DNA from: Gammaproteobacteria bacterium
GTDB lineage: Bacteria > Gemmatimonadota > Gemmatimonadetes > Longimicrobiales > Gaopeijiaceae
Assembly (NCBI GenBank): GCA_028820325.1
Contig: JAPPJO010000049.1
Span: 1 to 64,000, forward strand
Direction of reading: 5' to 3'
Length of the DNA stretch: 64,000 bases
Part shown: positions 34,432 through 59,972 of the stretch, piece after piece
Position numbering within the stretch: position 1 is the first letter of the stretch
How the letters are laid out: every line of letters begins with the position of its first letter
Notes under the pieces: model-generated
The model's database searches: none
Told to the model about the DNA's origin: nothing
The model's input: the letters and a program-made list of their open reading frames with translations, nothing else
Translations under genes and position numbers: made by a program

Positions 34432-34468
34432 TGCGCGCGGCCGCGCCAGCTCGCCAAGGGCTCCGCTG

Positions 34469-35638
34469 ATGCCCGCCGCGGCCCCGGCCCCGGAGCGAGA
34501 ACTCGTCGCCCATCTGGCTCGCTTCTCCGGCGAACTTCGCCACGCCGGCGTGCCCGTCGGCCTCCGCGATGAGATCGACGGCACCGCGGCCCTCCGCTTC
34601 GTCGACATCGGCGACCCGGAAGAGGTGCGGCTGGCACTCCGCAGCGCGCTCAGGATCCCGCGCCGCTGGTGGGCGGAGTTCGACCGCCTGTTCGACGAGA
34701 GCTGGCGCCGCGCCGCCCTCCCCCGCCCCGCCCACGCCCGGAACGCCCCCCGCACCCCCCGCCGCTGGCGAGGCGACGAGAACACCGAGGCGCCGCTGGC
34801 GCGGATCCGCCGCGAACTGGACGAACGGACCGGCCGGGGCGACGCGGAGGCGCCCGACGCCGACGGCGACCTCCCCGGCTACAGCCCGCGCGCGCTCCTG
34901 CGCAAGAAGGTCTTCGACGAGTGCACCCCGGACGATCTCCGCGACATGGAGCGTCTGCTCGAACGCCTCGCGCGCCGCATCGCCACCCGGCCGAGCCGCC
35001 GGCTGGTGCCATCGGAGCGCGGGCCGGTGGTGGACGTGCGCCGGAGTTTCCGCCGCTCGCTGGCCCACGGCGGCGAACTGGTCGAGCTGGCGCGCCGCGC
35101 GCGGGCGGTCGAGCTCCCCAGCCTGGTAGTCCTGTGCGACACCAGCGGGTCGATGGACGCCTGCTCGCGCTTCCTGCTCGCCTTCGTCTTCGCGCTGCGC
35201 AAGGTCACGCGCCGCACCGAGATCTTCGCCTTCAACACCTCGCTCACGCGCCTCACCCCGTGGCTCCGGACGGGCGACGTGGCCGGCACCCTGGAGCGGC
35301 TCGCCCGCAACGTGCGTGACTGGTCCGGCGGGACCCGCATCGGCGAGTGCCTGCTCGCCTTCGTCGACCACCACCTGCGGCACACCGTGCGAAGCGATAC
35401 CACGGTGTTGATCCTGAGCGACGGGCTCGACCGGGGCGACACGGAGTCGCTCGAGACGGCCCTGCTGGCCATCCGCCGGCGCGCCCGCCGGATCATCTGG
35501 CTCAACCCGCTCATGGGCGACCCGCGCTACCGTCCGGAGGCGAAGGGCATGCAGGCGGCGCTGCCGCACGTGGACCGCCTCGTGCCCGCCCACAACCTGG
35601 AGGCGCTGGAAGCCATCCTGCCGATGATCGAGCGCTAG
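34469..35638 (+). CDS. coxE: CoxE-like von Willebrand A domain protein
   Basis: 389 residues. N-terminal helical half, then a VWA domain with the MIDAS metal-site motif DTSGSMD in SLVVLCDTSGSMDACSRFL, and a later conserved WSGGTRIGECL plus ILSDGLDRGD. This is the CoxE family, the adaptor for the CoxD ATPase in CO dehydrogenase copper/cofactor loading. The ATG at 34469 is preferred because AAGGG sits upstream; the frame also has a TTG at 34409 inside the coxD stop region. Confidence 0.87.
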   Translation: MPAAAPAPERELVAHLARFSGELRHAGVPVGLRDEIDGTAALRFVDIGDPEEVRLALRSALRIPRRWWAEFDRLFDESWRRAALPRPAHARNAPRTPRRWRGDENTEAPLARIRRELDERTGRGDAEAPDADGDLPGYSPRALLRKKVFDECTPDDLRDMERLLERLARRIATRPSRRLVPSERGPVVDVRRSFRRSLAHGGELVELARRARAVELPSLVVLCDTSGSMDACSRFLLAFVFALRKVTRRTEIFAFNTSLTRLTPWLRTGDVAGTLERLARNVRDWSGGTRIGECLLAFVDHHLRHTVRSDTTVLILSDGLDRGDTESLETALLAIRRRARRIIWLNPLMGDPRYRPEAKGMQAALPHVDRLVPAHNLEALEAILPMIER

Positions 35639-35715
35639 ACGATGCGCGACGATCCCGGAATCGCGAGACTAACGGAAATGACCGAGTAACCGGAATAACC
35701 GGAGAAATAACCCGC

Positions 35716-36159
35716 ATGAAAATCCAGGACGGCTTCACCATCGACGCGCCCGCGGCCGACGTCTGGGCGCTGCTCTCCGACCCCGACCAGGTCGCGGACC
35801 TGCTCCCCGGCGCGAAGATGGGCGACATGATCGACGACAACACCTACTCGGGCGGGATGTTCGTGAAGGTCGGACCCCTCGCGGTGGCATACGACGGGAC
35901 CGTATCCTTCCAGTTGGACGAGAGCGAGCGGTCCGTGCAGGTGCGCGCCCGCGGCCGGGGCAAGCGCGGCATGGGCACCGCCGAGATGACCATGACCAGC
36001 CAAGTGGTCGCGCACGGCGACGCGCGCACCGAGGTGACGATCGATTCCGATGTCGTTGTGACCGGAATTCTGGCCCAGATGGGACGCGGCATGATCCAGG
36101 TCGTGTCGAAGAAGATGCTACAGGAGTTTGTGGGAAACCTCACCAAAGCACTTGCCTGA
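35716..36159 (+). CDS. coxG: CoxG-like SRPBCC protein
   Basis: 147 residues. SRPBCC/START-like fold: MKIQDGFTIDAPAADVWALLSDPDQVADLLPGA, then VKVGPLAVAYDGTVSFQLDESERSVQVRARGRG, and the amphipathic C-terminal helix (LAQMGRGMIQVVSKKMLQEFVGNLTKAL). CoxG proteins bind a hydrophobic ligand or tether CO dehydrogenase to the membrane/quinone pool. It sits between coxE and coxM on the same strand. Confidence 0.8.
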   Translation: MKIQDGFTIDAPAADVWALLSDPDQVADLLPGAKMGDMIDDNTYSGGMFVKVGPLAVAYDGTVSFQLDESERSVQVRARGRGKRGMGTAEMTMTSQVVAHGDARTEVTIDSDVVVTGILAQMGRGMIQVVSKKMLQEFVGNLTKALA

Positions 36160-36181
36160 ACCGGCAGAGGAGAGCTGAGAC

Positions 36182-37048
36182 ATGATTCCCCCGCAGTTCG
36201 ACTATCACGCCCCCGGCTCGCTGGACGAGGCGCTGGGGCTGCTCGGCTCCCTCGACGACCCGAAGGTGATGTCGGGCGGACAGAGCCTGCTGCCGATGCT
36301 GAAGCTGCGCCTGGCGTCGCCGGCGAACATCGTGGACATCGGCCGCATTCCGGGCCTCGACACGCTCGCGGAAGAGGACGGTTTCCTGCGCATCGGCGCG
36401 CTGGTCACCGAGACACAACTGGAGCAGTCGGCAGTGGTGGCGGAGCGCTATCCCATCCTGCTCGACACCGCGAAGGTGATCGCCGACCCGCTGGTGCGGA
36501 ACCGCGCCACCATCTGCGGCAACATCGCGCACGGCGACCCCGCCAACGACCATCCCGCGACCATGCTGGCGCTCGGCGCCCAGGTGGTGGCCACGGGACC
36601 GGACGGCGCGCGCACCATCGACATCGGCGAGTTCTTCTTCGGGCTCTTCATGACGGCGCTCGGAGAGGATGAGATCCTGACCGAAATCCGCATCCCGGCG
36701 CCCGCCCCCAACAGCGGCGGCGCCTACGTCAAGCTCGAGCGCAAGGTGGGCGACTACGCCGTGGCCGGATCCGCCGTTCAGCTCTCGCTGGCCGACGACG
36801 GTACCGTGGCGAGCGCGGGCATCGGGCTCACCAACCTGGGCATCGCCCCCATCCGCGCGACCGCCGCGGAGGACGCGCTCAAGGGCGCGGCTCCCACCGA
36901 CGACGTCATCGCCGCCGCCTCCCAGGCCGCCGCCGACGCCACCGAGCCCATCCCCGACCGGCGCGGTTCCATCGAATACAAGCAGAACATGGCCCGCGTG
37001 CTCACCGCCCGTGCCATCCGCAGGGCGCTCGCGCGCGCAGGAGGATAA
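36182..37048 (+). CDS. coxM: CO dehydrogenase medium (FAD) subunit
   Basis: 288 residues, standard CoxM length. FAD motifs: [16 protein letters not shown] and [28 protein letters not shown]. The C-terminal CO_deh_flav_C part is [23 protein letters not shown]. It transfers electrons from the iron-sulfur subunit to the acceptor. A GAGGAGAGC ribosome site precedes the ATG; coxS starts 4 bp after its stop. Confidence 0.92.
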
Positions 37049-37052
37049 AGCG

Positions 37053-37532
37053 ATGGCCACACACAACATCAACGTCACCGTGAACGGCGAGGCCCACGCG
37101 GCCGCCGTCGACTCGCGGCTTCTGCTCGTGCACCTGATCCGCGACGACCTCGCGCTCACCGGCACCCACATCGGCTGCGACACCACGCACTGCGGCGCGT
37201 GCACCGTGCTGATGGGCGGCGTGCCCGTGAAGTCGTGCACCGTGCTGGCCGTCCAGGCCGACGGGGCCGAGATCGGCACCGTGGAAGGGCTCGCGGGCGC
37301 CGACGGCATGACCCCGCTGCAGGAGGGCTTCCAGGAGGAGCACGGCCTCCAGTGCGGCTTCTGCACCCCCGGCATGCTCATGACCGGGACCGCGCTGCTC
37401 GAAAGCAATCCGAACCCCAGCGAAGCCGAGATCCGCGAGGCCATCTCCGGGAATCTCTGCCGCTGCACCGGATACGTGAACATCGTCAAGGCGGTCGAGT
37501 ACGCCGCCGCGAAGACGGGGGAGGGCGACTGA
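37053..37532 (+). CDS. coxS: CO dehydrogenase small (iron-sulfur) subunit
   Basis: 159 residues. First [2Fe-2S] plant-type site: [16 protein letters not shown]...SC; second site: [12 protein letters not shown] and [14 protein letters not shown]. It links the Mo-Cu centre of CoxL to FAD in CoxM. AGGAGGA precedes the ATG; the stop overlaps the coxL start (TGATG). Confidence 0.93.
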
Positions 37533-39898
37533 TGGCACCGAGAACATCCGCCAAGATCTGCGGCATGGGCCACTCCATGAAGCGCAAGGAGGACCCGCGC
37601 TTCCTGCAGGGCAAGGGCAACTACATCGACGACTTCACGCTGCCGGGGATGCTGTGGCTGGACATCGTCCGGAGCCCCATCGCCTACGGCAAGATCAAGA
37701 ACATCGACTCCTCGAAGGCGCTCGAGATTCCCGGCGTGCTCGCGGTGCTCACGGGCAAGGACCTGGAGGCGTACGGTCTGCACTGGATGCCGACCCTCAT
37801 GTCGGACACCCAGATGGTGCTCCCCACGGACACCGTGATGTACCAGGCGCAGGAGGTGGCCGGGGTGATCGCCACCTCGCGCTACGCGGCCGCCGACGGC
37901 GTGGCCGCGGTCGAGGTCGACTACGAGCCCATGAAGCCGGTCATCGACCCCTTCAAGGCGCTCGAGGACGACGCGCCCGTGCTCCGCACCGACAAGGAAG
38001 GCAAGACCGACAACCACATCTGGCACTGGGAGGCGGGCGACAAGGAGGCCACGGACCGGATCTTCGAAGAAGCCGATGTCGTGGTGCGCGAGAAGATGCA
38101 TGTGCCGCGCATCCACGTGGCGTCCATCGAGACCTGCGGCTGCCTCGCCGACTTCAACCCGGTCGAGGGGCACCTGACCGTCTACATGACCACCCAGGCG
38201 CCGCACGCCATCCGCACCGTGCTCGCGCTGGTGGCGGGCCACGTGGGGCTCTCCGAGGAGAAGATCCGCGTGGTGAGCCCCGACATCGGGGGCGGCTTCG
38301 GCGGCAAGGTCCCGGTGTACCCAGGCTACGTCGTCGCCATCGCGGCGTCGGTGGTGCTGGGCAAGCCGGTGAAGTGGATCGAGGACCGGATGGAGAACCT
38401 CCAGGCCGACTCGTTCGCGCGCGACTATCACATGGACGCCGAGATCGCGGCCAACGCCGACGGCAAGATCCGGGCGCTGCGCATCAAGACGATCGCGGAC
38501 CATGGGTACTCCGACGCCCAGGCCGCGCCGTCGAAGTGGCCGGCGGGCCTCTTCTCGATCTGCACCGGGTCCTACGACATGGAGCAGGCGTACGCCGAGG
38601 TCGACGCGGTCTACACCAACAAGCCGCCGGGAGGCGTCGCGTACCGCTGCTCGTTCCGCGTGACCGAGGCCGTGCACTGCATGGAGCGGGTGGTCGACAC
38701 GCTCGCGCACAAGGTCGGCAAGGATCCGGCGCAATTGCGCGAGGAGAACTTCATTCCCAAGGAGGCCTTCCCCTACCAGTCCCCGCTCGGCTGGGAGTAT
38801 GACAGCGGCGACTACCAGGCCGCGATGGACAAGGCGAAGGAGATGATCGGCTACGACGAGCTGCGCGCCGAGCAGGCCGAGAAGCGCGCGCGCGGCGAGC
38901 TGATGGGGATCGGCGTGTGCAGCTTCACCGAGGTGCTGGGCGCTGGCCCGTCCAAGGACTTCGACATCCTCGGCATCAAGATGTTCGACTCCGCCGAGGT
39001 GCGCGTGCACCCCACGGGGAAGGCGATCGCCCGCTTCGGCACCAAGTCGCAGGGCCAGGGCCACGAGACCACCTACGCGCAGATCATCGCCGAGGAGCTG
39101 GGCCTCCCGGCCGCGCACGTGCAGGTGGAGGAGGGCGACACCGACACCGCCCCCTACGGGCTGGGCACGTACGCCAGCCGCTCGACCCCGACCGCGGGCG
39201 CCGCGGGCGCGATGGCCGCCCGCCAGATCCGCGACAAGGCCGCGAAGATCGCCGCGCACCTGCTCGAGGTGAGCGAAGAGGACCTGGACTGGGAGCCCGG
39301 CACCTTCTCGGTGAAGGGCGCGCCCGACAAGTCGGTGTCCATCCAGGACTGCGCCTTCGCCGCCTACACCAACATGCCCGCGGGGATGGAGCCCGGGCTG
39401 GAGGCAACCAACTACTACGACCCGCCCAACCTCACCTTCCCCTTCGGCACCTACATCTGCGTCGTGGACATCGAACGCGGCACGGGCGAGGTGACCGTGC
39501 GGCGATTCGTGGCGGTGGATGACTGCGGGAACATCATCAACCCGATGATCGTCCAGGGCCAGATCCATGGGGGGCTGACCCAGGGGATCGGACCTGCGCT
39601 GTATGAGGAGATTCCTTACGACGAAGACGGCAACAACCTGGCCGGCTCGTTCATGGACTACCTGGTGCCGACCGCGGTGGAGACGCCGGCGTGGGAGACG
39701 GGGCATACGGTGACGCCCTCGCCGCATCATCCGCTGGGGGCGAAGGGGGTTGGGGAGTCGGCTACGGTGGGGGCGCCGCCGGCGATTGCGAATGCGGTGG
39801 TGGATGCGCTGGCGCACCTAGGGGTGACGCATGTGGAGATTCCGATCAGACCCGACCGTGTGTGGGAGATTCTGAGGGAGAGGGGGGTGGCGAAGTGA
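37532..39898 (+). CDS. coxL: Form I carbon monoxide dehydrogenase large subunit
   Basis: 788 residues. It holds the form I active-site motif AYRCSFR at residues 370-376, whose Cys373 binds copper in the Mo-Cu cluster (equivalent to Cys388 of Oligotropha CoxL). Other MCD-binding motifs: GGGFGGKVPV, SQGQGHETT, and GVGESATVGAPPAI with the catalytic Glu near the C-terminus. Form II enzymes have AYRGAGR instead, so this is a genuine aerobic CO oxidiser, which feeds electrons from CO to respiration, often as a survival energy source. It is last in the operon and overlaps coxS. Confidence 0.95.
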   Translation: MAPRTSAKICGMGHSMKRKEDPRFLQGKGNYIDDFTLPGMLWLDIVRSPIAYGKIKNIDSSKALEIPGVLAVLTGKDLEAYGLHWMPTLMSDTQMVLPTDTVMYQAQEVAGVIATSRYAAADGVAAVEVDYEPMKPVIDPFKALEDDAPVLRTDKEGKTDNHIWHWEAGDKEATDRIFEEADVVVREKMHVPRIHVASIETCGCLADFNPVEGHLTVYMTTQAPHAIRTVLALVAGHVGLSEEKIRVVSPDIGGGFGGKVPVYPGYVVAIAASVVLGKPVKWIEDRMENLQADSFARDYHMDAEIAANADGKIRALRIKTIADHGYSDAQAAPSKWPAGLFSICTGSYDMEQAYAEVDAVYTNKPPGGVAYRCSFRVTEAVHCMERVVDTLAHKVGKDPAQLREENFIPKEAFPYQSPLGWEYDSGDYQAAMDKAKEMIGYDELRAEQAEKRARGELMGIGVCSFTEVLGAGPSKDFDILGIKMFDSAEVRVHPTGKAIARFGTKSQGQGHETTYAQIIAEELGLPAAHVQVEEGDTDTAPYGLGTYASRSTPTAGAAGAMAARQIRDKAAKIAAHLLEVSEEDLDWEPGTFSVKGAPDKSVSIQDCAFAAYTNMPAGMEPGLEATNYYDPPNLTFPFGTYICVVDIERGTGEVTVRRFVAVDDCGNIINPMIVQGQIHGGLTQGIGPALYEEIPYDEDGNNLAGSFMDYLVPTAVETPAWETGHTVTPSPHHPLGAKGVGESATVGAPPAIANAVVDALAHLGVTHVEIPIRPDRVWEILRERGVAK

Positions 39899-40279
39899 GG
39901 GGGGAATGCGTGCCCGTACCCGATATCTCCTCGCGCAGTCCTCAGCGACGAACGTGGAGCCGCCGTCTTCGCTGTCACGGTCGCGAGCAAAGGACCGAAA
40001 CGCCGCTGGCCGGAAATGCGGCCGCCCCTGTGCTTTCCCTGAGGCTCATCCCTTCCGGCCTTCGAGTAGTCGCATCGGAAATCCAAGCTGCCCGCCAGCC
40101 ACCAATCTCTGAAATGCCCGACACCCTTAACGTAGTATCCGTCGCACATTTCGCTTTGCCAAGAACCCTCAACCGCCAGATGCGACCTCCGTCTCCGTCC
40201 CTTTGTCGCGTTACGTTTGTATCCAGTCCTCGCTAGCCTTCCAGCATTTCGTCACCAATAGGAACAATGGAGACTTTCC
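39899..40279. other. Transition zone, no gene
   Basis: 381 bp between coxL and the metallophosphoesterase-STAND gene. No protein-like frame is seen on either strand. Composition shifts from the GC-rich cox operon to the AT-richer accessory gene. It should hold the promoter of the following gene, but no clear -35/-10 pair is visible. Confidence 0.5.
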
Positions 40280-43200
40280 GTGACCTTCGCTGTTGTTCAT
40301 CTAACTGACTTCCACATCCGGTCGAATACCGATCCAATCCTTGCCCGTACTCCCTTGCTCGCGAGAGCTATTGCCTCTCGCACTCAAACTTGTAGCGGAA
40401 TCCTCCTCGCCGTCTCGGGGGATCTGTCATACTCCGGCGTTGAAGACGAACTACTAGACGCATTCTCTCTCGTCCAGCAACTCCAGCAGCTTCTAACGGA
40501 GGCAACCGCCGCGGATGTTTACATCTCTGCCATCCCGGGCAACCACGATTGCGATTTTTCCGACCCGACTACTATTCGCCAAACATTGCTCAACGCCGTG
40601 AATGGAGACGAAGAAGCGCTACAGGATGACGTACTTGTCGCGATAACTCAACCTCTTGCCAGTTTCTTCGAGCAACGCGACGCATGGTGCCCGCCAACCG
40701 TCGTCGATTCCCCAATCGCCTGGCATTACAATTTTCCAGTCCGCGACAAATCCATCTTGGTGATGTGCCTAAACACCGCGTGGTGTTCTTCTCGTAACGA
40801 GATTCAGGGAAGCCTGTTCGTACCCCAATCCCATTTCCCCGCCCAGCCCCCGGGGTCGCATGATCTCGTGATCGCCATGCTTCACCATCCCTACAACTGG
40901 ATGAAGTCTGGCAACGCCCGCCTTCTGACTGCTCATATCGAGCAACACGCCGACATTGTCATCACCGGCCATGAACATGTTCCCGACCACCGTCTGATAT
41001 CTAAGATCACTGGCGAACGGGTCCAGTACATCGAGGGCATCGCCCTCCAGGCCTCCGACACCAACTCCACTGGTTTCAATCTCATCACAATCGACCTCGC
41101 ACATCGCACCCAGCAATTGTGGACCCTAATTTGGGACCGCGATACTAATTGTTACATACCTGACACTCTCAGCCCTCCTATGACCGACATGCAGGTCAAT
41201 CGAGCGAGAAAGCGCAAACATTTCGTATTTACCGACGATTTTCTCCGCTTCTTGGACGATCTTGGCCTCCAGGTACAACATCCCGTCGCTGGCACCTTGA
41301 TACGGTCTGACGTCTTCACTTATCCTCACGTTCGGAAGATCCAACTTCGCGAAACCGCCTCCGGGAATCTGATCGGCGCCGAAGCCATGCCGTCCCACCT
41401 GGCCGACGAGCGCATTGTCTTGATCACCGGTGACGATGCGTCAGGCAAAACGACCCTCGCCAAGCAATTAGTTGTCGATCTGCTCGCGTCCGATGTTGTT
41501 CCCGTCTACATGTCCGGCCGTGACCGCGCCCATCGCACCATCCAATCCCCTGACGACGTCGTTCACGCCGTCTCGACAATTGTCTCACGTCAGTACGGCA
41601 GCACCAAGGTTGATGCCTATCACCAGCTCGACGTTGATCAACGGGCCATCATCGTCGATGATTACGACAAACTATCTGACGGCCACATCGCCGTTGACGA
41701 TCTGATCTCGTGCCTGACCGACATCTTCGGTCGCGTATATCTTTTCGCGGATGCGATGTCTCAAGAACTCAAGAGCATTGACGACGACCGTCGCCGGATT
41801 CTCTTGGAAGATCGCGAAGACGCGGCTCACTTTCGGATCCAACCTCTTGGCTTCCAACGACGTGCAGAGTTGGTTGAACGATGGGTGGCTCTCAAGGACA
41901 GCCATATTGACGCCGCCGCGCTCGTTAAGGAGATTGAACAACGAACGCGTACGATCAATACTGTGATTGGCCACAATTTAATACCCTCGTATCCGGTTTA
42001 CATTCTAGGTATTTTGCAGGCGAGCGACAGCGTCGGCCCCGTCGATCTCCGAGCCAGTATCAACGCCCACTATTACGAGCTGTTCATCAAGAACGCACTG
42101 GCACTAACTTCTGACAAGATCGCCTATTCAATCAAGACGTCATTCCTCGCCCGTCTAGCATATGAGATACTTCGTTCGGAAGATATGGGTATATCCGAAG
42201 AGCGATTCCGTGAGCTATATATGACGTTTACGACAAAATACGAGCTGCCGATCACCTTTGAACAGCTGGTCAAGATGTTGAAGGATAGCCGATTGCTGAT
42301 AGGGTTTCAGGGACGAGTCGAATTTAGATACGATTATTGCTTTTACTATTTTGCGGCTCTTCACATAACTAAAAACTTGCAGCAGGATTGGGCAAAGAAA
42401 TGCGTCGCCCACCTAGCGGACACGATATATGAGGAGAGAAACGCCAACATTTTTCTATTTCTCGCCCATTTATCGGAGAATTCAGTTATTCTCGACGAAA
42501 TGCTACGGTGTGCGCGAGAGATATGTAAGGGAAGCCCCGTCGCTGCCCTAAATCGCGCGGAGCTCCAGTTCCTAGAAGGAGACAGATCGGACTTGGCCAA
42601 GGCCGAGTTTCGGGATGTTGGGGATATTCGAGAACTACGTCGACGCGTTCTTGAACAGAAGGATCGAGAGGTGTTGGATGGAGTGGACACCGACGAAGGA
42701 GGTGAACTCGAATACGGGGATGAGTATGCTGTTGGGCAGGAGAAAATTCGTGAACTAGGCGCGGCGTTTAGAACTACTCAAATTCTCGGACAGGTACTGA
42801 AGAACTTCCCGGCGTCGATTGACGCTTCGAGAAAACGGGAGATCGCTCGGGCGGCTTATGAGGTGGCGCTGCGAGCGTTAACGGAGATTCTGACGCTCCT
42901 GAAGGGCAACTATGAGCCGATCGTTGTTGATTTTATGGCGCAACAGATGGGAGGGAGATGGCCAGGTGGGTACGGAGAAGCACTTCGAAATGCGCAACGA
43001 TCCGTTGCCGGGTTGACGCGTTTGGTGTCGTATAGCGCGGTGAGACGCATCGTGGATGCGTTGGGTGATCCGAACTGGATTCATCCAAGTCCGACTATTC
43101 AGCGCGTAGCGGATGAATTGGATTCTCCTGTCTCGGAGCTGACGGTGTTCGGTATGCGGTTGGATTATGGAGACGGATTTCCAAAACAACACTTGCGGCG

Positions 43201-43453
43201 AATAGATGATGCGCTCGAGGATAATCCAATTGCTCATGGAGTGCTTCAGTATCTTGTCATTAGACACATGCATCTGTTTGTTATGGATTATGAAGAACGT
43301 CAGAGCGCATGTGGCATTCTCGGAATCAATTACAGGAACTTGCGAATCAAGGCGTTGGACCCCCGAAGAAAATTGATCGAGAAGGGAAAGAAGAAGAAAT
43401 CCAAGAAGAAGAAGAGGGGGAGGAGAAAGCGGAAGGGTAGGAAGCGACGTTAG
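40280..43453 (+). CDS. Metallophosphoesterase-STAND NTPase protein with basic C-terminal tail
   Basis: 1057 residues. Residues 1-290 form a calcineurin-like metallophosphoesterase with every metal motif: D10/H12 in LTDFHI, GD at 47-48, GNHD at 87-90, H202/H203 in LHHPYNW, and GHEH at 230-233. Residues ~340-650 are a STAND/NACHT-like P-loop ATPase: Walker A GDDASGKT at 384-391, Walker B IIVDD at 457-461 and later winged-helix-like helices (EFRYDYCFYYFAALHI). The C-terminal third is helical and ends in a ~26-residue Lys/Arg tail. The start is GTG with GGAGA upstream. Composition is AT-rich for this genome (42181-42240 has 23 G/C of 60), a sign of transfer. Such effector-sensor layout is typical of antiphage STAND proteins; the effector would be a phosphodiesterase or nuclease. 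Function is inferred. Confidence 0.75.
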   Translation: MTFAVVHLTDFHIRSNTDPILARTPLLARAIASRTQTCSGILLAVSGDLSYSGVEDELLDAFSLVQQLQQLLTEATAADVYISAIPGNHDCDFSDPTTIRQTLLNAVNGDEEALQDDVLVAITQPLASFFEQRDAWCPPTVVDSPIAWHYNFPVRDKSILVMCLNTAWCSSRNEIQGSLFVPQSHFPAQPPGSHDLVIAMLHHPYNWMKSGNARLLTAHIEQHADIVITGHEHVPDHRLISKITGERVQYIEGIALQASDTNSTGFNLITIDLAHRTQQLWTLIWDRDTNCYIPDTLSPPMTDMQVNRARKRKHFVFTDDFLRFLDDLGLQVQHPVAGTLIRSDVFTYPHVRKIQLRETASGNLIGAEAMPSHLADERIVLITGDDASGKTTLAKQLVVDLLASDVVPVYMSGRDRAHRTIQSPDDVVHAVSTIVSRQYGSTKVDAYHQLDVDQRAIIVDDYDKLSDGHIAVDDLISCLTDIFGRVYLFADAMSQELKSIDDDRRRILLEDREDAAHFRIQPLGFQRRAELVERWVALKDSHIDAAALVKEIEQRTRTINTVIGHNLIPSYPVYILGILQASDSVGPVDLRASINAHYYELFIKNALALTSDKIAYSIKTSFLARLAYEILRSEDMGISEERFRELYMTFTTKYELPITFEQLVKMLKDSRLLIGFQGRVEFRYDYCFYYFAALHITKNLQQDWAKKCVAHLADTIYEERNANIFLFLAHLSENSVILDEMLRCAREICKGSPVAALNRAELQFLEGDRSDLAKAEFRDVGDIRELRRRVLEQKDREVLDGVDTDEGGELEYGDEYAVGQEKIRELGAAFRTTQILGQVLKNFPASIDASRKREIARAAYEVALRALTEILTLLKGNYEPIVVDFMAQQMGGRWPGGYGEALRNAQRSVAGLTRLVSYSAVRRIVDALGDPNWIHPSPTIQRVADELDSPVSELTVFGMRLDYGDGFPKQHLRRIDDALEDNPIAHGVLQYLVIRHMHLFVMDYEERQSACGILGINYRNLRIKALDPRRKLIEKGKKKKSKKKKRGRRKRKGRKRR

Positions 43454-43527
43454 GGGCGGGACGAAGAACGGTGGCAGGAAGAACCGTCACGGGCGAATGC
43501 CCGCATCCGGCTCTCAGTTGGTGCATG

Positions 43528-45330
43528 TCAGCGATGGCGAACGCCGATTCTGCCAGCCGGATCGCTGATTGCGGGCGATGCCCGAACCCTCGCACCGCCG
43601 CCGGCCGTTCCATTGATGCTGGCTTCCTGGGAGGCTAGCGACTCATGCAGAAGGGAGTCGAGTAGGCTACTGCGTATGCCATCGGCACCACGGACCTCGG
43701 CCTCCAACTGGTCGCACAGCGCCATGAGGGCATCGACCTTGGCGACGATGCGGCGCTGCTCGGCGAGGGGCGGCAGGCCGATGCTCATCGCCAACAGGAT
43801 GGATTGGTTCAGGTTCCGCATTGTTGTGCCGACGGAAGAACCTTGGAGGTATTCCCGAACATCGGGTGATCCGATGAGCATGGCGAGGTAATCTGCGCAA
43901 ACGCTGTCCGAAAGACGGAGGATCAAGCTTCCCGTCCCACAGAGCCAGCCATCCTCGTCCTCAGCCACTACCGCACATCGTCCCATTTCACCCCGGCGGC
44001 CCATCACGATGTCCCCAGCACGGAGCTTGAAGTTGGCAAGTCTCTCCAAGGTGTCGGTCCCGACGGCCATCTTTTCCACCGGCACGATCTTCCCATTGCG
44101 TATTGAAGCGGGGTTGACGACGGGTGTCCCGCCCATCTTGTAGTCGCTCTTGTGGAGTGAGCTGCCGAACGGTCCGGTCTGCAATCCAACCACGACATCC
44201 GACAACCTTGCGGCTATCCACCCACTTGGTAGTCCGACGGCGGCCGCGGGAGGCGACAGCGATCCTGTGAGTATTCGTTTTCTGATCTTGCGAGCCTTCA
44301 ACAGCCGCGCCTTCTTTGCCGCGATCTGCTTCAGCAACTCCGAGGCCGGCTCATCCGCCGAGTCCTGCTTTACGAGCTTCCCCCCCACGGCGAGGCGGAG
44401 GATGGTCTGCCGCAGGTGCTTGACCTGATCGGCGCGCGCGGTCAGCGCGGGAAGGGCATGGACGGCAAACCGCGCGTGACCCCGAAATGCCGCTGCGTCG
44501 GTGGCGGGAGCGGTCAGGCGGGCCAAGCTGGCGTTGGTGAGCCGGTCGCGGGTGTCCTCGCGCGCGGCGTGGGCTTCGTCCAACCGGTCGCAGAGGGCGA
44601 AAAGCTCGTCTACCTTCGCAACAATGCGGCGCTGCTCGGCGAGCGGCGGGAGCGGGAATGGCGCGACGACGGCATCCTTGGTGCGCAGTCGTGGCATCTT
44701 CGTCCCTTGCCCAAGCCGCGTGACGTAGTCCACGAAATCAGGGCGACGCAGTGCGAGTGCGCAGTATTCCGAAGACAGTTGAAGATACGGACGGATGGCT
44801 ACGATTTCGGTTGTCGAGTAGCCCGTCTCATCAGCGACAATCACTTTATTCAGGTAGGGGCGGAGCTTTCCGTAGAGAACATCGCCAGGTAAGAACCGTG
44901 ACTTGGTACTCTTCGACTCGCGCTCACTCGTTCGCACGCGGTTCAAGAGACGACCCGTTCCTTTCTCGATGTCTCGCAGCTCCAGGAGCCAAGCTGACGT
45001 GTCGAGCGCCTTTGGATCACACTTCGTTCCGGCATCGTAATGAAACACGGCCCCCAATGAGGCCCAACACCATGTGCGAGGCAAATCGAATGGTGCGGGA
45101 GCCATCTGCGGATGAACAGCCTTCTTCCTGCGCGTCCTGGCTGCGTTTGTCCGCCGCGCCTTTTCGGCAGCGATCCGCTTCAGCAGTTTCGACGCCGGTT
45201 CATCCGCCGGATCCTGTTCCACCAGCTTTCCCCGCACGGCTAGATCAAGCACGAACCGGCGCATGCGGTCGATGGCGTCCGGCGCGTCCACCACGCGGTC
45301 GTAGAGTACGAGGAGCCGCTCGGCGTTCAT
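43528..45330 (-). CDS. hsdS: Type I restriction-modification specificity subunit
   Basis: 600 residues with two target-recognition domains and two conserved coiled-coil repeats. Repeat one: LPPLAEQRRIVAKVDELFALCDRL; repeat two: LPPLAEQRRIVAKVDALMALCDQL. The N-terminal halves are also duplicated (LAVRGKLVEQDPADEPASKLLKRI and LAVGGKLVKQDSADEPASELLKQI). Each recognition domain reads half of a bipartite DNA target for the HsdM/HsdR complex. The start (45330) overlaps the stop of the HsdM C-terminal ORF as ATGA. It is convergent with the STAND gene. Confidence 0.9.
   Translation of the reverse strand: MNAERLLVLYDRVVDAPDAIDRMRRFVLDLAVRGKLVEQDPADEPASKLLKRIAAEKARRTNAARTRRKKAVHPQMAPAPFDLPRTWCWASLGAVFHYDAGTKCDPKALDTSAWLLELRDIEKGTGRLLNRVRTSERESKSTKSRFLPGDVLYGKLRPYLNKVIVADETGYSTTEIVAIRPYLQLSSEYCALALRRPDFVDYVTRLGQGTKMPRLRTKDAVVAPFPLPPLAEQRRIVAKVDELFALCDRLDEAHAAREDTRDRLTNASLARLTAPATDAAAFRGHARFAVHALPALTARADQVKHLRQTILRLAVGGKLVKQDSADEPASELLKQIAAKKARLLKARKIRKRILTGSLSPPAAAVGLPSGWIAARLSDVVVGLQTGPFGSSLHKSDYKMGGTPVVNPASIRNGKIVPVEKMAVGTDTLERLANFKLRAGDIVMGRRGEMGRCAVVAEDEDGWLCGTGSLILRLSDSVCADYLAMLIGSPDVREYLQGSSVGTTMRNLNQSILLAMSIGLPPLAEQRRIVAKVDALMALCDQLEAEVRGADGIRSSLLDSLLHESLASQEASINGTAGGGARVRASPAISDPAGRIGVRHR
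43741..44651 (-). repeat. Direct repeat inside hsdS
   Basis: The segments around 43741-43775 and 44617-44651 are nearly identical and encode the two copies of LAEQRRIVAKVD. They could recombine to swap or remove a recognition domain. Confidence 0.6.
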
Positions 45331-45605
45331 CGAAGTAGCGCGTCGGCAAGGATCTCCTTCAACTGGTCTCGAACCGAGACCACCTCGGCTTCGGCACTGT
45401 TCAGTCTCACCAGAAGCGCCTCGGGATCGCCTAGATCCGCTTCCACGGTATGAGGATTCTTGATGTCGAGGTTGTAGCCGCGCGCCTTGACCTCGTCGGC
45501 GGTAACCCTCCAAGCGCGGCCACCCTCCTCTCGGCCCTCGCGCTCTGCTCCGCCCCACCACTCGGCGCAGTCGTTGAGATGCTCCACCCGAATCGGCCGT
45601 GTCAT
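45327..45605 (-). CDS. C-terminal fragment of HsdM as a separate ORF
   Basis: 92 residues: MTRPIRVEHLNDCAEWW, then RAWRVTADEVKARGYNLDIKNPH. This is the normal C-terminal end of type I N6-adenine methylases (the NYNLDIKNPH element), not a protein of its own. Its ATG overlaps the stop of the main hsdM frame (ATGA at 45605-45602), and a one-base insertion would join them. It could be made by coupled translation and assemble with HsdM, or mark a broken gene or sequencing error. Its stop overlaps hsdS. Confidence 0.8.
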   Translation of the reverse strand: MTRPIRVEHLNDCAEWWGGAEREGREEGGRAWRVTADEVKARGYNLDIKNPHTVEADLGDPEALLVRLNSAEAEVVSVRDQLKEILADALLR

Positions 45606-46777
45606 GGAATACGCCTCTGACCCTCCGGCACGAGATGCTCCCAGAACCAGACTTCCCTCGTCGGTTCCCCTTTTTCGAAGAAAAGCAGGTTCGTCCCGAT
45701 CGAGGCGTAGGGGCGGAACACGGAGTTGGGCAGGCGCACGATGGTGTGGAGGTTGCACTCCTCCATCAGGTGCTGTTTCAGTCGGGTCTTGACGCCCTCG
45801 CCAAACAGGGAGCCATCGGGAAGGACCACTGCGGCCCGGCCTCCCGGCTTGAGTAGTCGGATGATGAGTGCCAAGAACAGATCCGCCGTCTCGCGCGTCC
45901 GGAAGTGCGGCGGAAAGTTCGCCTCGATGCCGTCCGCCTCCTTGCCGCCGAACGGCGGATTGGTGAGCACGATATCCACGCGATCATCGCGCCCCCACGA
46001 GACGTAGGGTCGGGCCAACGTGTTGTCGTGTCTCAGGAACGACGGGTCCTCGATTCCGTGCAGCAGCATGTTGGTGACGGCGAGCATGTGCGGCAGCGGC
46101 TTCTTCTCAACCGCGCGCAGGGAGGCCTGCATCTGCGCCCGGTCCTCCGGGCGCTTCACATGATGGTCGATCATGTGGCGGATGGCGCAGGTCAGAAACC
46201 CTCCAGTGCCGCACGCCGGATCGAGAACGGTCTCACCCGGCTTGGGGTCGATCATCCGAGCCATGAACGAGGTTACGGCGCGCGGCGTGTAGTATTCGCC
46301 CGCGTTGCCGGCCGATTGCAGGTCGTTGAGCATCTGTTCGTAGATGTCGCCGAAGTGCTGCCGGTCGGCGAGGTTGTTGAAGTCGATCCCATTGATCTTG
46401 TTGATGATCTGCCGCAGCAGCTGGCCCGACTTCATGTAGTTGTAGGCGTCAGCGAACACATCACGCACGACAGTCGCGCGAGGGCCGGACCGGGCCGGGA
46501 GTTCCTTGAGGCGGGGAAAGAGGTCGCCGTTGACGAAATCGAGGAGATCATCACCCGTGATGCCCTCCGGATCGGCGGCCCAGTTCCGCCACCGCAAAGG
46601 GGGCGGGACCGGCGAGCGGTAGCCGTCCGTGAAGGTCTCGAGTTCCTGGTCCTGGTCGTCGATGATCTTGAGGAAGAACATCCAGCACAATTGGCTCATG
46701 CGTTGGGCGTCGCCATCGACGCCCACATCCTGGCGCATGATGTTCTGAATGGACTTGACGAGCGTGCCGACGGCCAT
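45602..46777 (-). CDS. hsdM: Type I restriction-modification methyltransferase, frameshifted
   Basis: 391 residues. It has the N-terminal HsdM helical domain (GTLVKSIQNIMRQDVGVDGDAQRMSQLCWMFF), the SAM motif DPACGTGGF at 186-194 and catalytic NPPFGG at 273-278. It stops at VPEGQRRIP, where relatives run on through a Y-S/T-K/M-T-x-P stretch to about 480-520 residues. That missing part lies in the next frame directly after the stop (the 92-residue ORF at 45327-45605). It methylates adenine in the HsdS target. It starts 3 bp after hsdR. Confidence 0.87.
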   Translation of the reverse strand: MAVGTLVKSIQNIMRQDVGVDGDAQRMSQLCWMFFLKIIDDQDQELETFTDGYRSPVPPPLRWRNWAADPEGITGDDLLDFVNGDLFPRLKELPARSGPRATVVRDVFADAYNYMKSGQLLRQIINKINGIDFNNLADRQHFGDIYEQMLNDLQSAGNAGEYYTPRAVTSFMARMIDPKPGETVLDPACGTGGFLTCAIRHMIDHHVKRPEDRAQMQASLRAVEKKPLPHMLAVTNMLLHGIEDPSFLRHDNTLARPYVSWGRDDRVDIVLTNPPFGGKEADGIEANFPPHFRTRETADLFLALIIRLLKPGGRAAVVLPDGSLFGEGVKTRLKQHLMEECNLHTIVRLPNSVFRPYASIGTNLLFFEKGEPTREVWFWEHLVPEGQRRIP

Positions 46778-46780
46778 CTC

Positions 46781-49141
46781 TCAGGCGCTCTCCCGGTAGA
46801 GTTCGGATTGAAGATGGTGGACGGCCCGCTCGAAGCCCGGTTTGCCACCGAAGGCGCGAACAAGTTCGAGCGGCGTGCCAAGGCTGTCGAGCGGCGGTAT
46901 CCGGAGCACTTTCGCGTCGTCCAGATTGAGGACGCCCTCGTCGGCGTACTTGTCGAGCAGCGCATCGAGCACCGCACGGGCTTTACCCGCGTACTTGGTG
47001 AACACGCCCCGTTTCCTAACGTTCGCGGCCCGCTCGCGGCGGGTCAGCGGTGGGGCGTCGAAAGCGACATGACAGATGAGATCGAAGGGGTCGAGATCGT
47101 TCCCCAGCTCCTCGACGATCACGTCCAACCGAAGGCCCTCGGACTCCATCTCGTCGATGATCGCCTGCTTGCGCTCCTCGCCGTTCCAACGATTCAGGAA
47201 GTCATCAAGGCCTGCGAAACGCTTCCGCAGCGCCCGGCGTGTGAAGTCGCGGAGCGTTTCCGTGATGAGTTTGCCCTTCCCGTCGAGATACTCGACCCGC
47301 TCGGCGACAACGGTGGCTTCGATGCCATCGACATAGATCTTCTCCTGCGGGCCGGTCTTCGGAGGGAGTGGTCGAGGCGGATCGGGGCCATCAATGATCT
47401 CGCCGTTGCCGGGTCCGTTCGGCCCATTCGGTGGCGGATCGGGCGGGAGAACGGGATCGTTTGGTCCGGGCTCGTAGATCTGCTCCGGCTCGCCGTCGAA
47501 TCCGGGATCCGCAAAAAGACTGGAGGCCTTCCGGAAGTCGATGAGCGTGAAGTAGAACTTTCCCGTGTCCTCGTGCACGCGGGTGCCCCGGCCGACGATC
47601 TGCTTGAACTCGGTCATCGTTCCGACCACCCGGTCGATCACGATCAGTCGGCACGTTTGGACATCCACGCCGGTCGATAGCAGCCGCGACGTGGTGACGA
47701 GGACTGGGTAGGGCGATTCCGGGTCGATGAAGTTCCCGAGTTGGTTCTTTCCGGTCTCGTCTTCGCCCGTGATCCGCATGACGTACCGAGCGTTCCGTTG
47801 GACGAGATCCGCATTCTCGTTGACCAGTGCTTGGCGCATCCGGGCGGCGTGCTCCTGATCGACGCAGAAGATGATGGCTTTCTGGAAGCGGTCGCCGCTC
47901 TCCCGCAGGAACGCCGTGATCTTCTCCGCAACTGCCTTGGTGCGACCGTCGATGACCAGCGTGCGGTCGAACTCTCTGACGGTGTAGTTGCGATCATCCA
48001 CCGGCTTGCCATCGCGGGCAAGCTGGCCCTTTGTGGGACGCCAGCCTTCGATGTCCCGGTCGATGTGAACCTTGACCACCTTGTAGGGCGCGAGAAATCC
48101 ATCGCTGATTCCCTGCTTCAGGGAGTAGGAGAACACGGGTTTCCCGAAGTAGGCGATGTTCGAGACGTACTTGGTCTCCTTCGGCGTGGCGGTGAGCCCG
48201 ATCTGCGTCGCGGCGGAGAAGTACTTGAGGATCTCACGCCACGCTGAATCGGCTGCGGCACTGCCCCGGTGGCACTCGTCGATCACGATCAGGTCGAAGA
48301 AGCCGGGCGAGAGCTTCTTGTCGGCCTTCTGGTGCTCCTCGGGCCCGGTGATCGCTTGATAGAGGCCGAGGTAGACCTCGTAGGAGGTGTCGATGCGGCG
48401 CGACAGTTTGGTCATCGCGCCCCCGAACGGCCGGAAGTCGTTCGCCATCGTCTGGTCGACGAGGACGTTCCGGTCGGCAAGGAACAGGATGCGCTTCTTA
48501 CGTCCTGCCTTCCACAGCCGCCAGATGATCTGGAAAGCGGTGAACGTCTTGCCCGTGCCCGTGGCCATGACCAGCAAGATGCGGTTCTGCCCCTTGGCGA
48601 TGGCCTCGACGGCCGCGTTCACGGCGTTGACCTGGTAGTAGCGCGGTGTCTTGCCGCCGCCGTCCTCGAAGTAGTCCTGTAGTACGGTGTCCTCGGCTTC
48701 CGGCGTAAGTCCCTTCCAGGTCCGGTAGCGCTCCCACAGATGGTCCGGCGATGGAAAACCATCGAGCGTCAAGTTGGTCTCAATGGGGTTGCTGCCTCCC
48801 GTGCGGTCGTGGAATACGAAGCCGTCGCCGTTCGAGGAGAACGCGAAGGGGATGTGCAGCGTCTCAGCGTAGTCCAGCGCCTGCTGCATGCCGTCGCCGA
48901 CGCCGTGGTTGTTATCCTTGGCCTCGATCACCGCGACCGGGATGTTCGGCTTGACGGAGAGGATGTAGTCGGCCCGTTTCCGCCTGCGGCGCGTCACCAG
49001 CTTGCCGCGCACCACGATGCGGCCAGCAGTGAACGTTACCTCCTCGCGAAGCTGTGACATCTCGTCCCATCCGGCCCCGCGGAGGGCGGGAGTGATGAAC
49101 TTCGTGCAGATGTCGCGTTCCGAGAGGCCTCGCTTGTCCAT
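46781..49141 (-). CDS. hsdR: Type I restriction enzyme motor/endonuclease subunit
   Basis: 786 residues. N-terminal PD-(D/E)XK nuclease: DYILSVKPNIPVAVIEAKDNNHG. SF2 helicase motor: ATGTGKTFTAFQIIWRL (motif I), IDECHRGSA (II), GLTATPKET (III), ITRSRLLSTGVD-like VTTSRLLSTGVDVQTC, and QIVGRGTRVHEDTGKFYFTLIDF (VI). A Pro/Gly-rich hinge (residues ~555-590) leads to the EcoEI-type C-terminal domain. It translocates and cuts unmethylated DNA. The nuclease and motor motifs look intact. Gene order R-M-S on the minus strand. Confidence 0.92.
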   Translation of the reverse strand: MDKRGLSERDICTKFITPALRGAGWDEMSQLREEVTFTAGRIVVRGKLVTRRRRKRADYILSVKPNIPVAVIEAKDNNHGVGDGMQQALDYAETLHIPFAFSSNGDGFVFHDRTGGSNPIETNLTLDGFPSPDHLWERYRTWKGLTPEAEDTVLQDYFEDGGGKTPRYYQVNAVNAAVEAIAKGQNRILLVMATGTGKTFTAFQIIWRLWKAGRKKRILFLADRNVLVDQTMANDFRPFGGAMTKLSRRIDTSYEVYLGLYQAITGPEEHQKADKKLSPGFFDLIVIDECHRGSAAADSAWREILKYFSAATQIGLTATPKETKYVSNIAYFGKPVFSYSLKQGISDGFLAPYKVVKVHIDRDIEGWRPTKGQLARDGKPVDDRNYTVREFDRTLVIDGRTKAVAEKITAFLRESGDRFQKAIIFCVDQEHAARMRQALVNENADLVQRNARYVMRITGEDETGKNQLGNFIDPESPYPVLVTTSRLLSTGVDVQTCRLIVIDRVVGTMTEFKQIVGRGTRVHEDTGKFYFTLIDFRKASSLFADPGFDGEPEQIYEPGPNDPVLPPDPPPNGPNGPGNGEIIDGPDPPRPLPPKTGPQEKIYVDGIEATVVAERVEYLDGKGKLITETLRDFTRRALRKRFAGLDDFLNRWNGEERKQAIIDEMESEGLRLDVIVEELGNDLDPFDLICHVAFDAPPLTRRERAANVRKRGVFTKYAGKARAVLDALLDKYADEGVLNLDDAKVLRIPPLDSLGTPLELVRAFGGKPGFERAVHHLQSELYRESA

Positions 49142-49367
49142 TCCGCTCAGCAGTCTTCCGTTCCGTTCGGTGTCACCTTCCGTTCCTCCGTCTCCTAGCC
49201 CGTCTCAGCGGCCTCGATCGGCTTCAGTCGCTGGTATTGCTCCACCGCGAGACCCACTCGGCTAGTGGCCGGCTGATTCTTGGCCAATCGGCCGTCGCAC
49301 GCAAGCCGGACGGTACCCAAGTGGGGTTCATGGGGAGTTCTACAGAGAGCGCCTTCCGAGCCGCTGG

Positions 49368-50340
49368 CTAGTCCGGCATCGGAAGCGCCTTGACTCGAGG
49401 CGCGAGGATGGCGTGGAGCGCTTCCACCCTGGCAAGGAGCCAGCGGTACTGCTCGATACGCTGGTCAGGATCCCCAAAGTCGGTCGCGAGACGCCAGTAG
49501 ACCCTCCGCTGCTGGACACCGGTGGGATTGTACCATTCCAGCGCTTCATCGAACTCGTGCTCTTTCTCGATTACCTGTCGGTCGACGTGCAGCAGATCGA
49601 AGTAGTGATCGCTTTCTTGAACCGGTGATTTGTAGTTCCGCCCTCAGTTCGTGACCGCCAGCCTCCGTCCATGTGGACATGACACCGTACAGGAAGAAGC
49701 CGCCCCGTCCGACTCCGGCCACTCCCAGCCAGCTCTGAGGCCGAGGCGCGTGAGTCTTGGTTACGATCTTGCCCTTTCGGGAGACGAACTCCGCGAAGCC
49801 CTCCCAGAAGCGAAGTTGAATCCGTTGGGTGTCCGTCAGCGCTCCCTTATCCACACCCTCCTTCGTCCAGTCGTTCGGCCTGGTGACGACGTTGAGCTTC
49901 GGCGCCGGTGCCGATTCCCCGATTCGCCAAAGCTCGATCTCCAGACCGAAGAACCGAGTACCGGTTTCGGACACTTCGTTGAGCCAGTCCAGCGCGGCTC
50001 GGTGCTGATCCGTGAATGTTCTGGCGACCCACACCACCACCCGGGCGTTGAAATGGGAGGCATAGGTCAGAAGTTTGCCCAGGTGGTCGTGATCCGTCTG
50101 GCCCAGCTGATTCTCCACCACCACCATGGTCTGGTCGCTCGGATCCCGGCAGAGGACATCGGCCGAATACGGACCCACCTTTTCCTCTCGCGCTACAAAC
50201 TCCAAGGACATTCCCAAGGCGTCAGCTAGGATCCCCAGGTTTTCCTGCTCTGCCAGCCAAGGAGTGAAGTCCTTCTCTTCATTTGGCCAAACCTCGCGCA
50301 GTGCAACAGGTTCTAGGCGGCCAAGGTTGGTCTTACCCAT
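49368..50340 (-). pseudogene. DUF4268 nuclease-like gene with a frameshift
   Basis: The first ~240 codons give a DUF4268-type protein: NLGRLEPVALREVWPNEEKDFTPWLAEQENL, then a PD-(D/E)XK-like core (YSADVLCRDPSDQTMVVVENQLGQTDHDHLGKLLTYAS), and the DUF4268 domain (GVMSTWTEAGGHELRAELQITG). At about 49620 the frame is lost and the written ORF runs on as nonsense to 49546. The true C-terminus continues in the +1-shifted frame: SDHYFDLLHVDRQVIEKEHEF, EALEWYNP, and RIEQYRWLLARVEALHAILAP, to a TAG at 49368-49370. Total length (~323 residues) then equals the family norm. DUF4268 proteins are linked to nuclease/defence roles. It could be an inactive gene, a recoding site or a sequencing error. Confidence 0.75.
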
Positions 50341-50468
50341 GTGCGCTCATCCCTCCGGTCCGGTGCCTTCTCCAGCCAACCTGTCGGATGACTACCGTTC
50401 TACAACAGTTGGGTTTCTGGCGGGTGTCCTCGGTGGCCACCGGGGCACCCGCATTTCCCTGTTCGGCG

Positions 50469-53213: not shown

Positions 53214-53674
53214 GGCCGGCCTCTCGGCGCATTATTGGGTCCAGCGACCCGATCCCGCAGCACCGGTCCCGGACCTGCGTTGTGCTTGGCAGGATCCAAT
53301 GCTAGGCGTTGCGTTTGCGTTACGCTAGAGTCGCCCGGAGAACGTCAGAGCGATATCAAGAGGATTTGCAAGTCGCGCACAGCTCGGAATTGTGTAGCTC
53401 CGGGCGTTTGGGGTGTCCGATCCGCCCTTCTCACCTGAATCAGGAGATTATTTCGTAATCCAACCTCAAACTGCCGCACGGCAGGACCTTGCGTTGCGCC
53501 GGAGCAAGCCCGTCGCCTACCCTGCGTGGAAGGGCGGAGGTCAACTCCACACAGTGGGATGTTCAAGATCCGGGGGTCAGATCCTCCACCGACCGGCGAC
53601 GATTGCCCGAACTCTCGCCATAGGCGCGTCAACGCGATGTGGAGCAGGAGTCTCTCCGCTCTTCATCCCGGCAT
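53214..53674. other. Gene-free stretch between LRR-protease and HD-protein genes
   Basis: 461 bp. Only short frames without protein-like character on either strand. No repeat, hairpin or tRNA recognised. Confidence 0.5.
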
Positions 53675-54247: not shown

Positions 54248-54387
54248 CACGCCCCTGCTGCAGAGTAAGCCATAAGCCAAACGACGGCACCGAACGTCCA
54301 TCCAGCCCGCCATTGCGGTGGGCGCTCACCAGAATGGTCGAGACCGGATCGGGCTGGATTACCCGCGTCAGGAGCCGCGCCGCCGGT

Positions 54388-56529: not shown

Positions 56530-56541
56530 GGAACTGCTGCG

Positions 56542-59039: not shown

Positions 59040-59126
59040 CAAGTCACCGTTTCGCTTTGCCCGACATTCCGCATGAACGCCGTGTCCACGCCTCGTCCGC
59101 CGCGCTGACTCGTCGCACCTTCCTCC

Positions 59127-59278: not shown

Positions 59279-59337
59279 GTCGACATCCGCGTGGCATCGA
59301 CCATGCTCGGGCGACTGTCGAGGCAGCGGAGTCGGAG

Positions 59338-59868: not shown

Positions 59869-59972
59869 CTCGAAAGCGTCTCGGCAGTCCAGCGCGTCCG
59901 AGTTGTGGCCCGGACCCCTGCGCCTTACGATTGGCAACTTCCCAGGTCTTCCGAGCACGCGGAGTCGTCGCA

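What the first reader, a model, noticed from the sequence alone, without database searches (positions are those of the whole stretch)
40280..43453. Metallophosphoesterase-STAND NTPase with Lys/Arg tail: candidate antiphage protein
A complete metallophosphoesterase active site is fused to a P-loop STAND-like ATPase and a helical C-terminal sensor-like region ending in about 20 Lys/Arg of the last 26 residues. It is AT-rich, single-gene, and beside a type I RM operon. Effector-NTPase-sensor is the layout of bacterial immune STAND proteins, but the tail and the exact combination are not something I can match to a named system.
Basis: partly seen in the sequence, partly recalled or inferred. Interest (0 to 1): 0.75.

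Follow-up and report, generated by a model that had tools for sequence, protein, structure and literature searches.

The report
DS-8 anti-phage immune protein
This is a bacterial immune protein of a recently described kind (DS-8) that joins a phosphate-bond-cutting enzyme to an NLR-like switch; it is a new member of that known family, with an unusual positively charged tail seen only in this species.

Summary
In detail: window 40280-43453 (+) is one 1057-codon, GTG-started gene with an intact metallophosphoesterase site, a P-loop (K390), a helical C-terminus and 19 Lys/Arg in the last 26 residues. But it has a name. It matches NCBIfam NF053861 "DS8_antiphage" over the whole model, above cut-off (814 vs 790 bits), and PADLOC PDC-S60. 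DS-8 is a single-protein system that protects E. coli from phage; metallophosphatase or NACHT mutations abolish protection (PMC13092281). The predicted structure fits: SMPDL3A/class III phosphodiesterase-like effector, NLRC4/NLRP3-like NACHT, helical C-terminal domain. Relatives carry a TIR domain on the same NTPase-sensor half. The gene lies just past a sharp boundary: upstream DNA is collinear in five of five congeners, while in six of six homology breaks at the end of the preceding gene; two of the five whose downstream genes were scanned gave strong hits to other defence families. The Lys/Arg tail is outside the family model and absent from 18 of 18 relatives. New member of a known kind; substrate and trigger unknown.

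The parts
40280..43453 (+). DS-8 family gene, 1057 aa plus stop, GTG start
   Evidence: ORF; NF053861 814.3 bits vs cut-off 790, residues 7-1016 = model 1-994; PDC-S60
40280..41179 (+). Metallophosphoesterase effector domain, residues 1 to about 300 (D10/H12 at 40307-40315, D48, N88-H89, H202/H203, H231/H233)
   Evidence: Pfam Metallophos above gathering score; invariant residues; structural match to YydB model, Lmo2642, SMPDL3A, Rv0805
41309..41899 (+). NACHT/STAND nucleotide-binding domain and HD1, about residues 344-540; P-loop K390 at 41447-41449; likely Walker B D460/D461
   Evidence: nSTAND3 above gathering; Foldseek to NLRC4, NLRP3, NAIP5, Avs5, Avs4; G389-K390 invariant; exact limits approximate
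42077..42529 (+). Winged-helix and HD2 part of the NACHT module, about residues 600-750
   Evidence: nSTAND_NTPase4 638-692 above gathering; model of 600-1030 aligns to NLRC4 (Z 12.4, rmsd 5.3, 188 aligned), NLRP9 (Z 12.0, rmsd 3.2, 170 aligned), NLRP3 (Z 10.8, rmsd 2.8, 158 aligned); exact limits approximate
42719..43327 (+). C-terminal helical domain, residues 814-1016, presumed trigger sensor
   Evidence: helices at block pLDDT mostly 74-96; no confident fold match; sensor role inferred
43328..43450 (+). Species-specific C-terminal stretch, residues 1017-1057, ending in the Lys/Arg-rich tail, encoded by a purine-rich tract
   Evidence: 19 K/R of last 26, two longest pure purine/pyrimidine runs of the window; 4-8 K/R of last 26 in 18 relatives; low pLDDT at 1021-1044 and 1050-1057
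43528..49141 (-). Neighbouring type I restriction genes hsdS, hsdM (frameshifted), hsdR; context, not part of DS-8
49546..50340 (-). PDC-S11 candidate defence gene; context
   Evidence: PADLOC PDC-S11 E 1.1e-89

Best explanation
The gene is a DS-8 protein: a single-protein, NLR-like anti-phage alarm. Most likely it idles as a nucleotide-bound monomer; a phage product bound by the C-terminal helical domain lets the NACHT ATPase exchange nucleotide and oligomerise; this activates or clusters the N-terminal metallophosphoesterase, which cuts a phosphodiester-containing molecule (a nucleotide or nucleotide signal more likely than a nucleic acid) and stops phage growth, probably by halting the infected cell. 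Shown for the family by others: phage protection, and the need for both catalytic domains. Shown here: membership, intact residues, layout. Inferred: trigger, oligomerisation, substrate, cell fate. The Lys/Arg tail is a species-specific addition, at most modifying localisation or nucleic-acid contact.
For: Full-length equivalog match above curated cut-off; PDC-S60 over residues 316-1019 (232 bits) and 5-699 (99.7 bits). DS-8 protects E. coli, and metallophosphatase or NACHT mutants lose protection (passages of PMC13092281). Metal-site and P-loop motifs kept in 14 of 14 metallophosphoesterase rows, this one included. Predicted structure: effector like Lmo2642 Z 20.9, SMPDL3A Z 20.5, Rv0805 Z 19.2; centre like NLRC4/NLRP3. 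The same NTPase-sensor half carries TIR domains elsewhere, as expected of an exchangeable effector. More defence-type neighbours than in control stretches and a variable site with other defence genes in congeners.
Against: The score clears the cut-off by only 24 bits. Identity to other members examined is about 21-33%. Neither phage trigger nor substrate is known, and no solved relative was found by sequence. The phage-tested E. coli DS-8 sequence was not held, so identity to it was not measured. That DS-8 halts the infected cell was not stated in the passages read. In 4 of 7 neighbour loci none of the genes tested singly gave a defence hit. The NLR match of residues 600-940 is at Z 10-12, a range in which helical models can score by common arrangement alone.
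Confidence: 0.85

Rival explanations
1. The metallophosphoesterase is a nuclease (Mre11-like use of the fold), and the Lys/Arg tail holds it on DNA or RNA, so activation degrades phage or host nucleic acid.
For: Same fold family: Mre11 chains appear at Z 15.8-16.1; strongly basic tail.
Against: Phosphodiesterase and acid-phosphatase chains match better (Z 19-21); the tail is absent in 18 of 18 relatives, so it is not needed by the family; the DS-8 authors write of a cyclic nucleotide, by homology to SMPDL3A.
Confidence: 0.15
2. The gene is a DS-8 relic that no longer works here: the tail comes from a simple-sequence expansion at the 3' end, and its neighbour hsdM is already broken.
For: Tail encoded by the longest purine runs of the window, low pLDDT; hsdM frameshift.
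Against: The whole 1057-codon frame is open and identical in a second genome of the species; the catalytic motifs are intact.
Confidence: 0.08
3. A non-defence nucleotide-signalling STAND ATPase.
For: Calcineurin-type phosphoesterases also serve ordinary signalling (recalled).
Against: Match to a phage-tested equivalog; sporadic occurrence, 3 of 395 phylum genomes over cut-off, two of them of one species; low G+C and location at a variable site.
Confidence: 0.03

Closest known systems
DS-8 (DefensePredictor; NCBIfam NF053861 DS8_antiphage)
   Same: Metallophosphatase plus NACHT in one protein, whole model matched above cut-off, single gene, catalytic residues kept
   Different: Extra C-terminal stretch of 41 residues beyond the model with a Lys/Arg-rich end; low identity to other members examined; no phage test
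PADLOC PDC-S60
   Same: Both models match; one over the NTPase-sensor half, the other over effector plus NTPase
   Different: A candidate class in that library; no paper naming it was found in the library searched
TIR-bearing relatives, and the TIR-NLR of P4 satellites (PMC9122126, passages)
   Same: Plasmid and genome relatives share the NTPase and C-terminal domain; TIR-NLR shares the effector-STAND-sensor logic
   Different: Effector is TIR; the P4 TIR-NLR is described with TPR repeats and was not aligned to this protein here
Avs4/Avs5 and eukaryotic NLRs (NLRC4, NLRP3)
   Same: NACHT/STAND core by predicted fold
   Different: Different effector and sensor; no Avs model among the PADLOC matches listed
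SMPDL3A and class III cyclic-nucleotide phosphodiesterases (Rv0805, Lmo2642)
   Same: Fold of the effector domain
   Different: 11-17% identity in the aligned rows; the solved chains are the phosphoesterase without a STAND NTPase (recalled)

Membership tests
DS-8 | Score above the curated NF053861 cut-off over the full model | tested here: met
   814.3 vs 790 bits, model 1-994
DS-8 | N-terminal metallophosphatase with catalytic metal ligands | tested here: met
   Pfam, invariant residues, fold match incl. SMPDL3A
DS-8 | NACHT P-loop NTPase with intact Walker A lysine | tested here: met
   K390, NLR fold matches
DS-8 | Single-gene system | tested here: met
   381 bases from the upstream gene, convergent with hsdS downstream; transcription itself not measured
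DS-8 | Phage protection lost in catalytic mutants | not testable with these tools
   Known for E. coli DS-8 from PMC13092281
PDC-S60 (PADLOC) | Match to PADLOC models | tested here: met
   PDLC05050 E 3.7e-69, PDLC05051 E 3.2e-29
STAND/NACHT NTPases | Curated family score | tested here: met
   nSTAND3 and nSTAND_NTPase4 pass; PF05729 NACHT itself 23.4 vs 26.7, below
Avs (AVAST) | Match to Avs models | tested here: inconclusive
   No Avs model among the six PADLOC families listed at E up to 1; fold resemblance of the NTPase only
STAND NLR-like immune proteins | Oligomerisation on trigger binding | not testable with these tools
   inference from fold

The most novel reading that the evidence does not exclude
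The Lys/Arg tail is a functional, species-specific module that gives this DS-8 a new target or location (nucleic acid or ribosome contact, or membrane), turning a family thought to cut a soluble nucleotide into one acting on a bound substrate.
Probability: 0.12. Interest if true: 0.5.

Novelty: new member of a known kind. Interest (0 to 1): 0.32.

Why it matters
It extends DS-8, whose substrate and trigger are unknown, to a lineage about 21-33% identical to the members examined, which sharpens which residues matter. The TIR-bearing relatives show that effectors are exchanged on this chassis, so the sensor could be studied with a readout that is already understood (NAD loss) while the phosphoesterase substrate is still unknown. 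The site after the xanthine dehydrogenase-type gene looks like a defence hotspot in this genus.

Tried and rejected
Housekeeping family: rejected, the best curated match is an anti-phage equivalog. Solved relative by sequence: none at E up to 1. The genome-contig scan confirmed 10 relatives among 71 pattern matches and reaches close relatives only. Tail homologues: the tail DNA was found only in the two genomes of this species among 11 genus genomes, and a KKKK-x-KKKK codon pattern likewise. Fold of residues 814-1016: Foldseek gave no match at E 0.001 for the 600-1030 model, and the better VIA rows lie mainly on the NACHT part; no claim of a new fold is made. YydB/YydD, the top VIA row (an integrative model): three papers were found, seen in the listing only. 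Number of effector swaps: two trees. The first (18 rows) had included effector residues in five rows by a flaw in my domain cutting; it was redone with clean cuts and one more row (19 rows: 14 metallophosphoesterase, 5 TIR). Both need two changes of label, with the near-identical pair L006/L007 inside the TIR rows, but well-supported branches force only one, so the number is open. Neighbour test: families, not genes, were counted in the large scans (156 versus 6); only the first 25 of the 156 were shown and these are overlapping methylase, HsdR and HsdS profiles; the third HsdR-matching flank gene was not located. PDC-S31 turned up both beside a relative (L004) and in the control, so it counts for little; the other control hits were SspA, DndA, mad2 and mad3, one protein each. 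Rows left out of the tail count: L008 (contig end), L050 (489-aa ORF), L054 (split), partial matches L012 and L016-L042, and repeat copies L011, L014, L015, L055-L057, L072, L077. L045-L048 were fetched and not used.

Full report
What is there. The gene at 40280-43453 on the + strand is an open frame of 1057 codons starting at GTG. Its G+C is 52.4% against 68.0% in the preceding xanthine dehydrogenase-type gene and 59-63% in the five genes that follow. Pfam places Metallophos at residues 5-235, nSTAND3 at 372-424 and nSTAND_NTPase4 at 638-692, all above gathering score; NACHT (378-537) is just below. In an alignment with nine full-length relatives at 21-26% identity, D10, H12, D48, N88-H89-D90, H202, H203, H231, H233 and G389-K390 are invariant; the DxH, GD, GNHD, HHP, GHEH and P-loop motifs are found in 14 of 14 metallophosphoesterase rows, this one included. 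This is the ligand set of a two-metal phosphoesterase (motif meaning recalled, not from a call).

What it is. NCBIfam NF053861, DS8_antiphage, matches residues 7-1016 over all 994 model positions with 814.3 bits; the curated cut-off is 790. PADLOC's PDC-S60 matches with both its models. DS-8 was described in the DefensePredictor paper (PMC13092281; abstract and opening, outline, passages and figure legends seen): a single protein with a metallophosphatase and a NACHT domain that protects E. coli from phage; [quoted passage not shown] the authors liken the effector to human SMPDL3A and leave the substrate open. Its taxonomic and phage heat maps are figures and were not seen. Two earlier comparative papers, seen as passages, had predicted calcineurin-type phosphoesterases as effectors of conflict systems, one of them as cyclic-nucleotide cleavers (PMC7159879; PMC8195603).

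Structure. An AlphaFold2 model from ten sequences has mean pLDDT 75.0 and pTM 0.67. VIA-align 2 puts the first 300 or so residues on the YydB integrative model (Z 27.4, rmsd 3.1, 294 aligned), Lmo2642 (Z 20.9, 3.2, 249), SMPDL3A (Z 20.5, 3.3, 264), purple acid phosphatases (up to Z 19.8) and Rv0805 (Z 19.2, 2.9, 218). Foldseek's best matches for the rest are NLRC4, NLRP3, NAIP5 and NLRP9, with Avs5 and Avs4 further down. A second model of residues 600-1030 (pLDDT 83.4) aligns to NLRC4 (Z 12.4, rmsd 5.3, 188 aligned) and NLRP9 (Z 12.0, 3.2, 170); at least 19 of the first 23 rows name NLR-family chains. Helical models can reach such Z by common arrangement alone, so this is support, not proof, for a winged-helix/HD2 region. 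The last 200 residues are helical without a confident match; a sensor role is inference.

Relatives and effector exchange. By tblastn, 10 of 72,556 plasmid records match: 2 over at least 80% of the protein (one, H2, in two pieces), five (H3-H7) over the NTPase and C-terminal part only, with an annotated TIR domain, three only over the phosphoesterase. Among 369 genomes of the class of G406 (a genome chosen because it has the gene), 4 match at E 1e-60 or better, G406 included; 2 are over cut-off, and the other two begin with TIR-like sequence as judged by eye. A viral contig carries the same half behind a TIR domain (Pfam TIR_2), split into separate ORFs. So one NTPase-sensor chassis carries at least two effectors; a 19-row tree does not settle how often the swap happened. 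Over the cut-off are 3 of 395 genomes of the phylum, two of them of this species, and 2 of 348 in the class of G404, itself chosen for having the gene.

The tail. Residues 1017-1057 lie beyond the family model. The last 26 residues hold 19 Lys/Arg in this protein and 4-8 in 18 of 18 relatives, 13 with the phosphoesterase (two of them near-identical) and 5 with TIR. The DNA is purine-rich (68 of 80 bases) and holds the two longest pure purine/pyrimidine runs of the window. It occurs in both genomes of this species, whose copies of the gene are identical, and in none of nine congeners. A simple-sequence expansion at the gene's end is the plainest origin; a function is possible but unsupported.

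Neighbourhood. Downstream lie hsdS, hsdM and hsdR, a PDC-S11 gene and a leucine-rich-repeat protein. The hsdM ORF covers only model positions 1-390 of 569; its likely C-terminal part is in another frame, and the second genome is identical there. Flanking 7 relatives, 101 ORFs of at least 110 aa match 156 PADLOC families at E 1e-15 (at least three HsdR-type members); 120 ORFs from seven stretches elsewhere in the same genomes (six of 20 kb, one of 10 kb) match 6 families, one protein each. Of 20 flank ORFs tested singly, type I RM genes were found in L001 and L005 and a PDC-S31 gene in L004; none was found among those tested from L002, L003, L009 and L010.

A defence hotspot. The xanthine dehydrogenase-type gene before DS-8 is present in 11 of 11 genus genomes. 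All nine congeners outside the species were fetched: three end within or just after that gene (G002, G005, G006), six run on. In six of six the alignment to the window stops at 39901-39904, the end of the gene. Beyond it, five show no match or only short patches (three in all, 66-233 bases); the sixth, G009, shows none until window 55284 and then shuffled patches to 63312, which would make the inserted block here about 15 kb. Upstream, five of five congeners with sequence there align along nearly all of it (2.4 to 19.6 kb, as far as their contigs or the stretch fetched reach). Of ten proteins taken from five of the downstream stretches (six of them from G008), strong PADLOC hits were ThsB twice, PbeA and PbeC in G008 and PtuA-like in G003; G007 and G001 gave weak hits and the one protein tested of G004 none. 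The genes of G009 were not scanned.

How it works. Best reading: trigger binding by the C-terminal domain, ATP-dependent assembly through NACHT, activation of the phosphoesterase, and arrest of the infection. The effector's place among phosphodiesterases and the TIR alternatives on the same chassis favour a nucleotide substrate over nucleic acid, but this is inference. Membership is well supported; mechanism beyond the two required domains is not shown.

Novelty. A new member of a known kind. A search for SMPDL3A, bacterial, metallophosphatase and NACHT (five papers listed) and one for DS-8 with anti-phage (one paper) gave only the DefensePredictor paper as relevant, judged by the listings; PDC-S60 gave none. 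The library lacks most subscription journals and most preprints.

Noticed in passing
window 39904 to about 55284; L065-L069, L080-L084, L089: Sharp boundary after a conserved xanthine dehydrogenase-type gene: collinear upstream in five of five congeners, broken downstream in six of six, with Thoeris-like, PbeA/PbeC and Septu-like genes there in two.
   Followed up: partly
window 45330-46777 (-): hsdM is split by a frameshift between its catalytic part and its likely C-terminal part; the same state in a second genome of the species, so the type I RM may be inactive.
   Followed up: partly
window 50469-53213 (-): 914-aa protein with leucine-rich repeats and a weak reprolysin-type metallopeptidase match; its N-terminus looks like a lipoprotein signal by eye.
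   Followed up: no
window 33166-39019: All 33 differences between the two genomes of this species in 32879-51879 fall upstream of 39020 and in patches; further out there are 3 in 51880-64000 and 23 mismatches plus 9 gap positions in 12871-32878. The patches could be recombination tracts beside the island.
   Followed up: partly
L054:4525-7032: Viral contig with phage-like genes around a TIR plus DS-8-type NTPase-sensor gene split into three ORFs.
   Followed up: partly
G052:C130 (L017), G094:C2 (L016): Other phylum genomes have a DS-8-like phosphoesterase match in open frames of 1552 and 595 aa without a match to the DS-8 NTPase half; possible further fusions.
   Followed up: no
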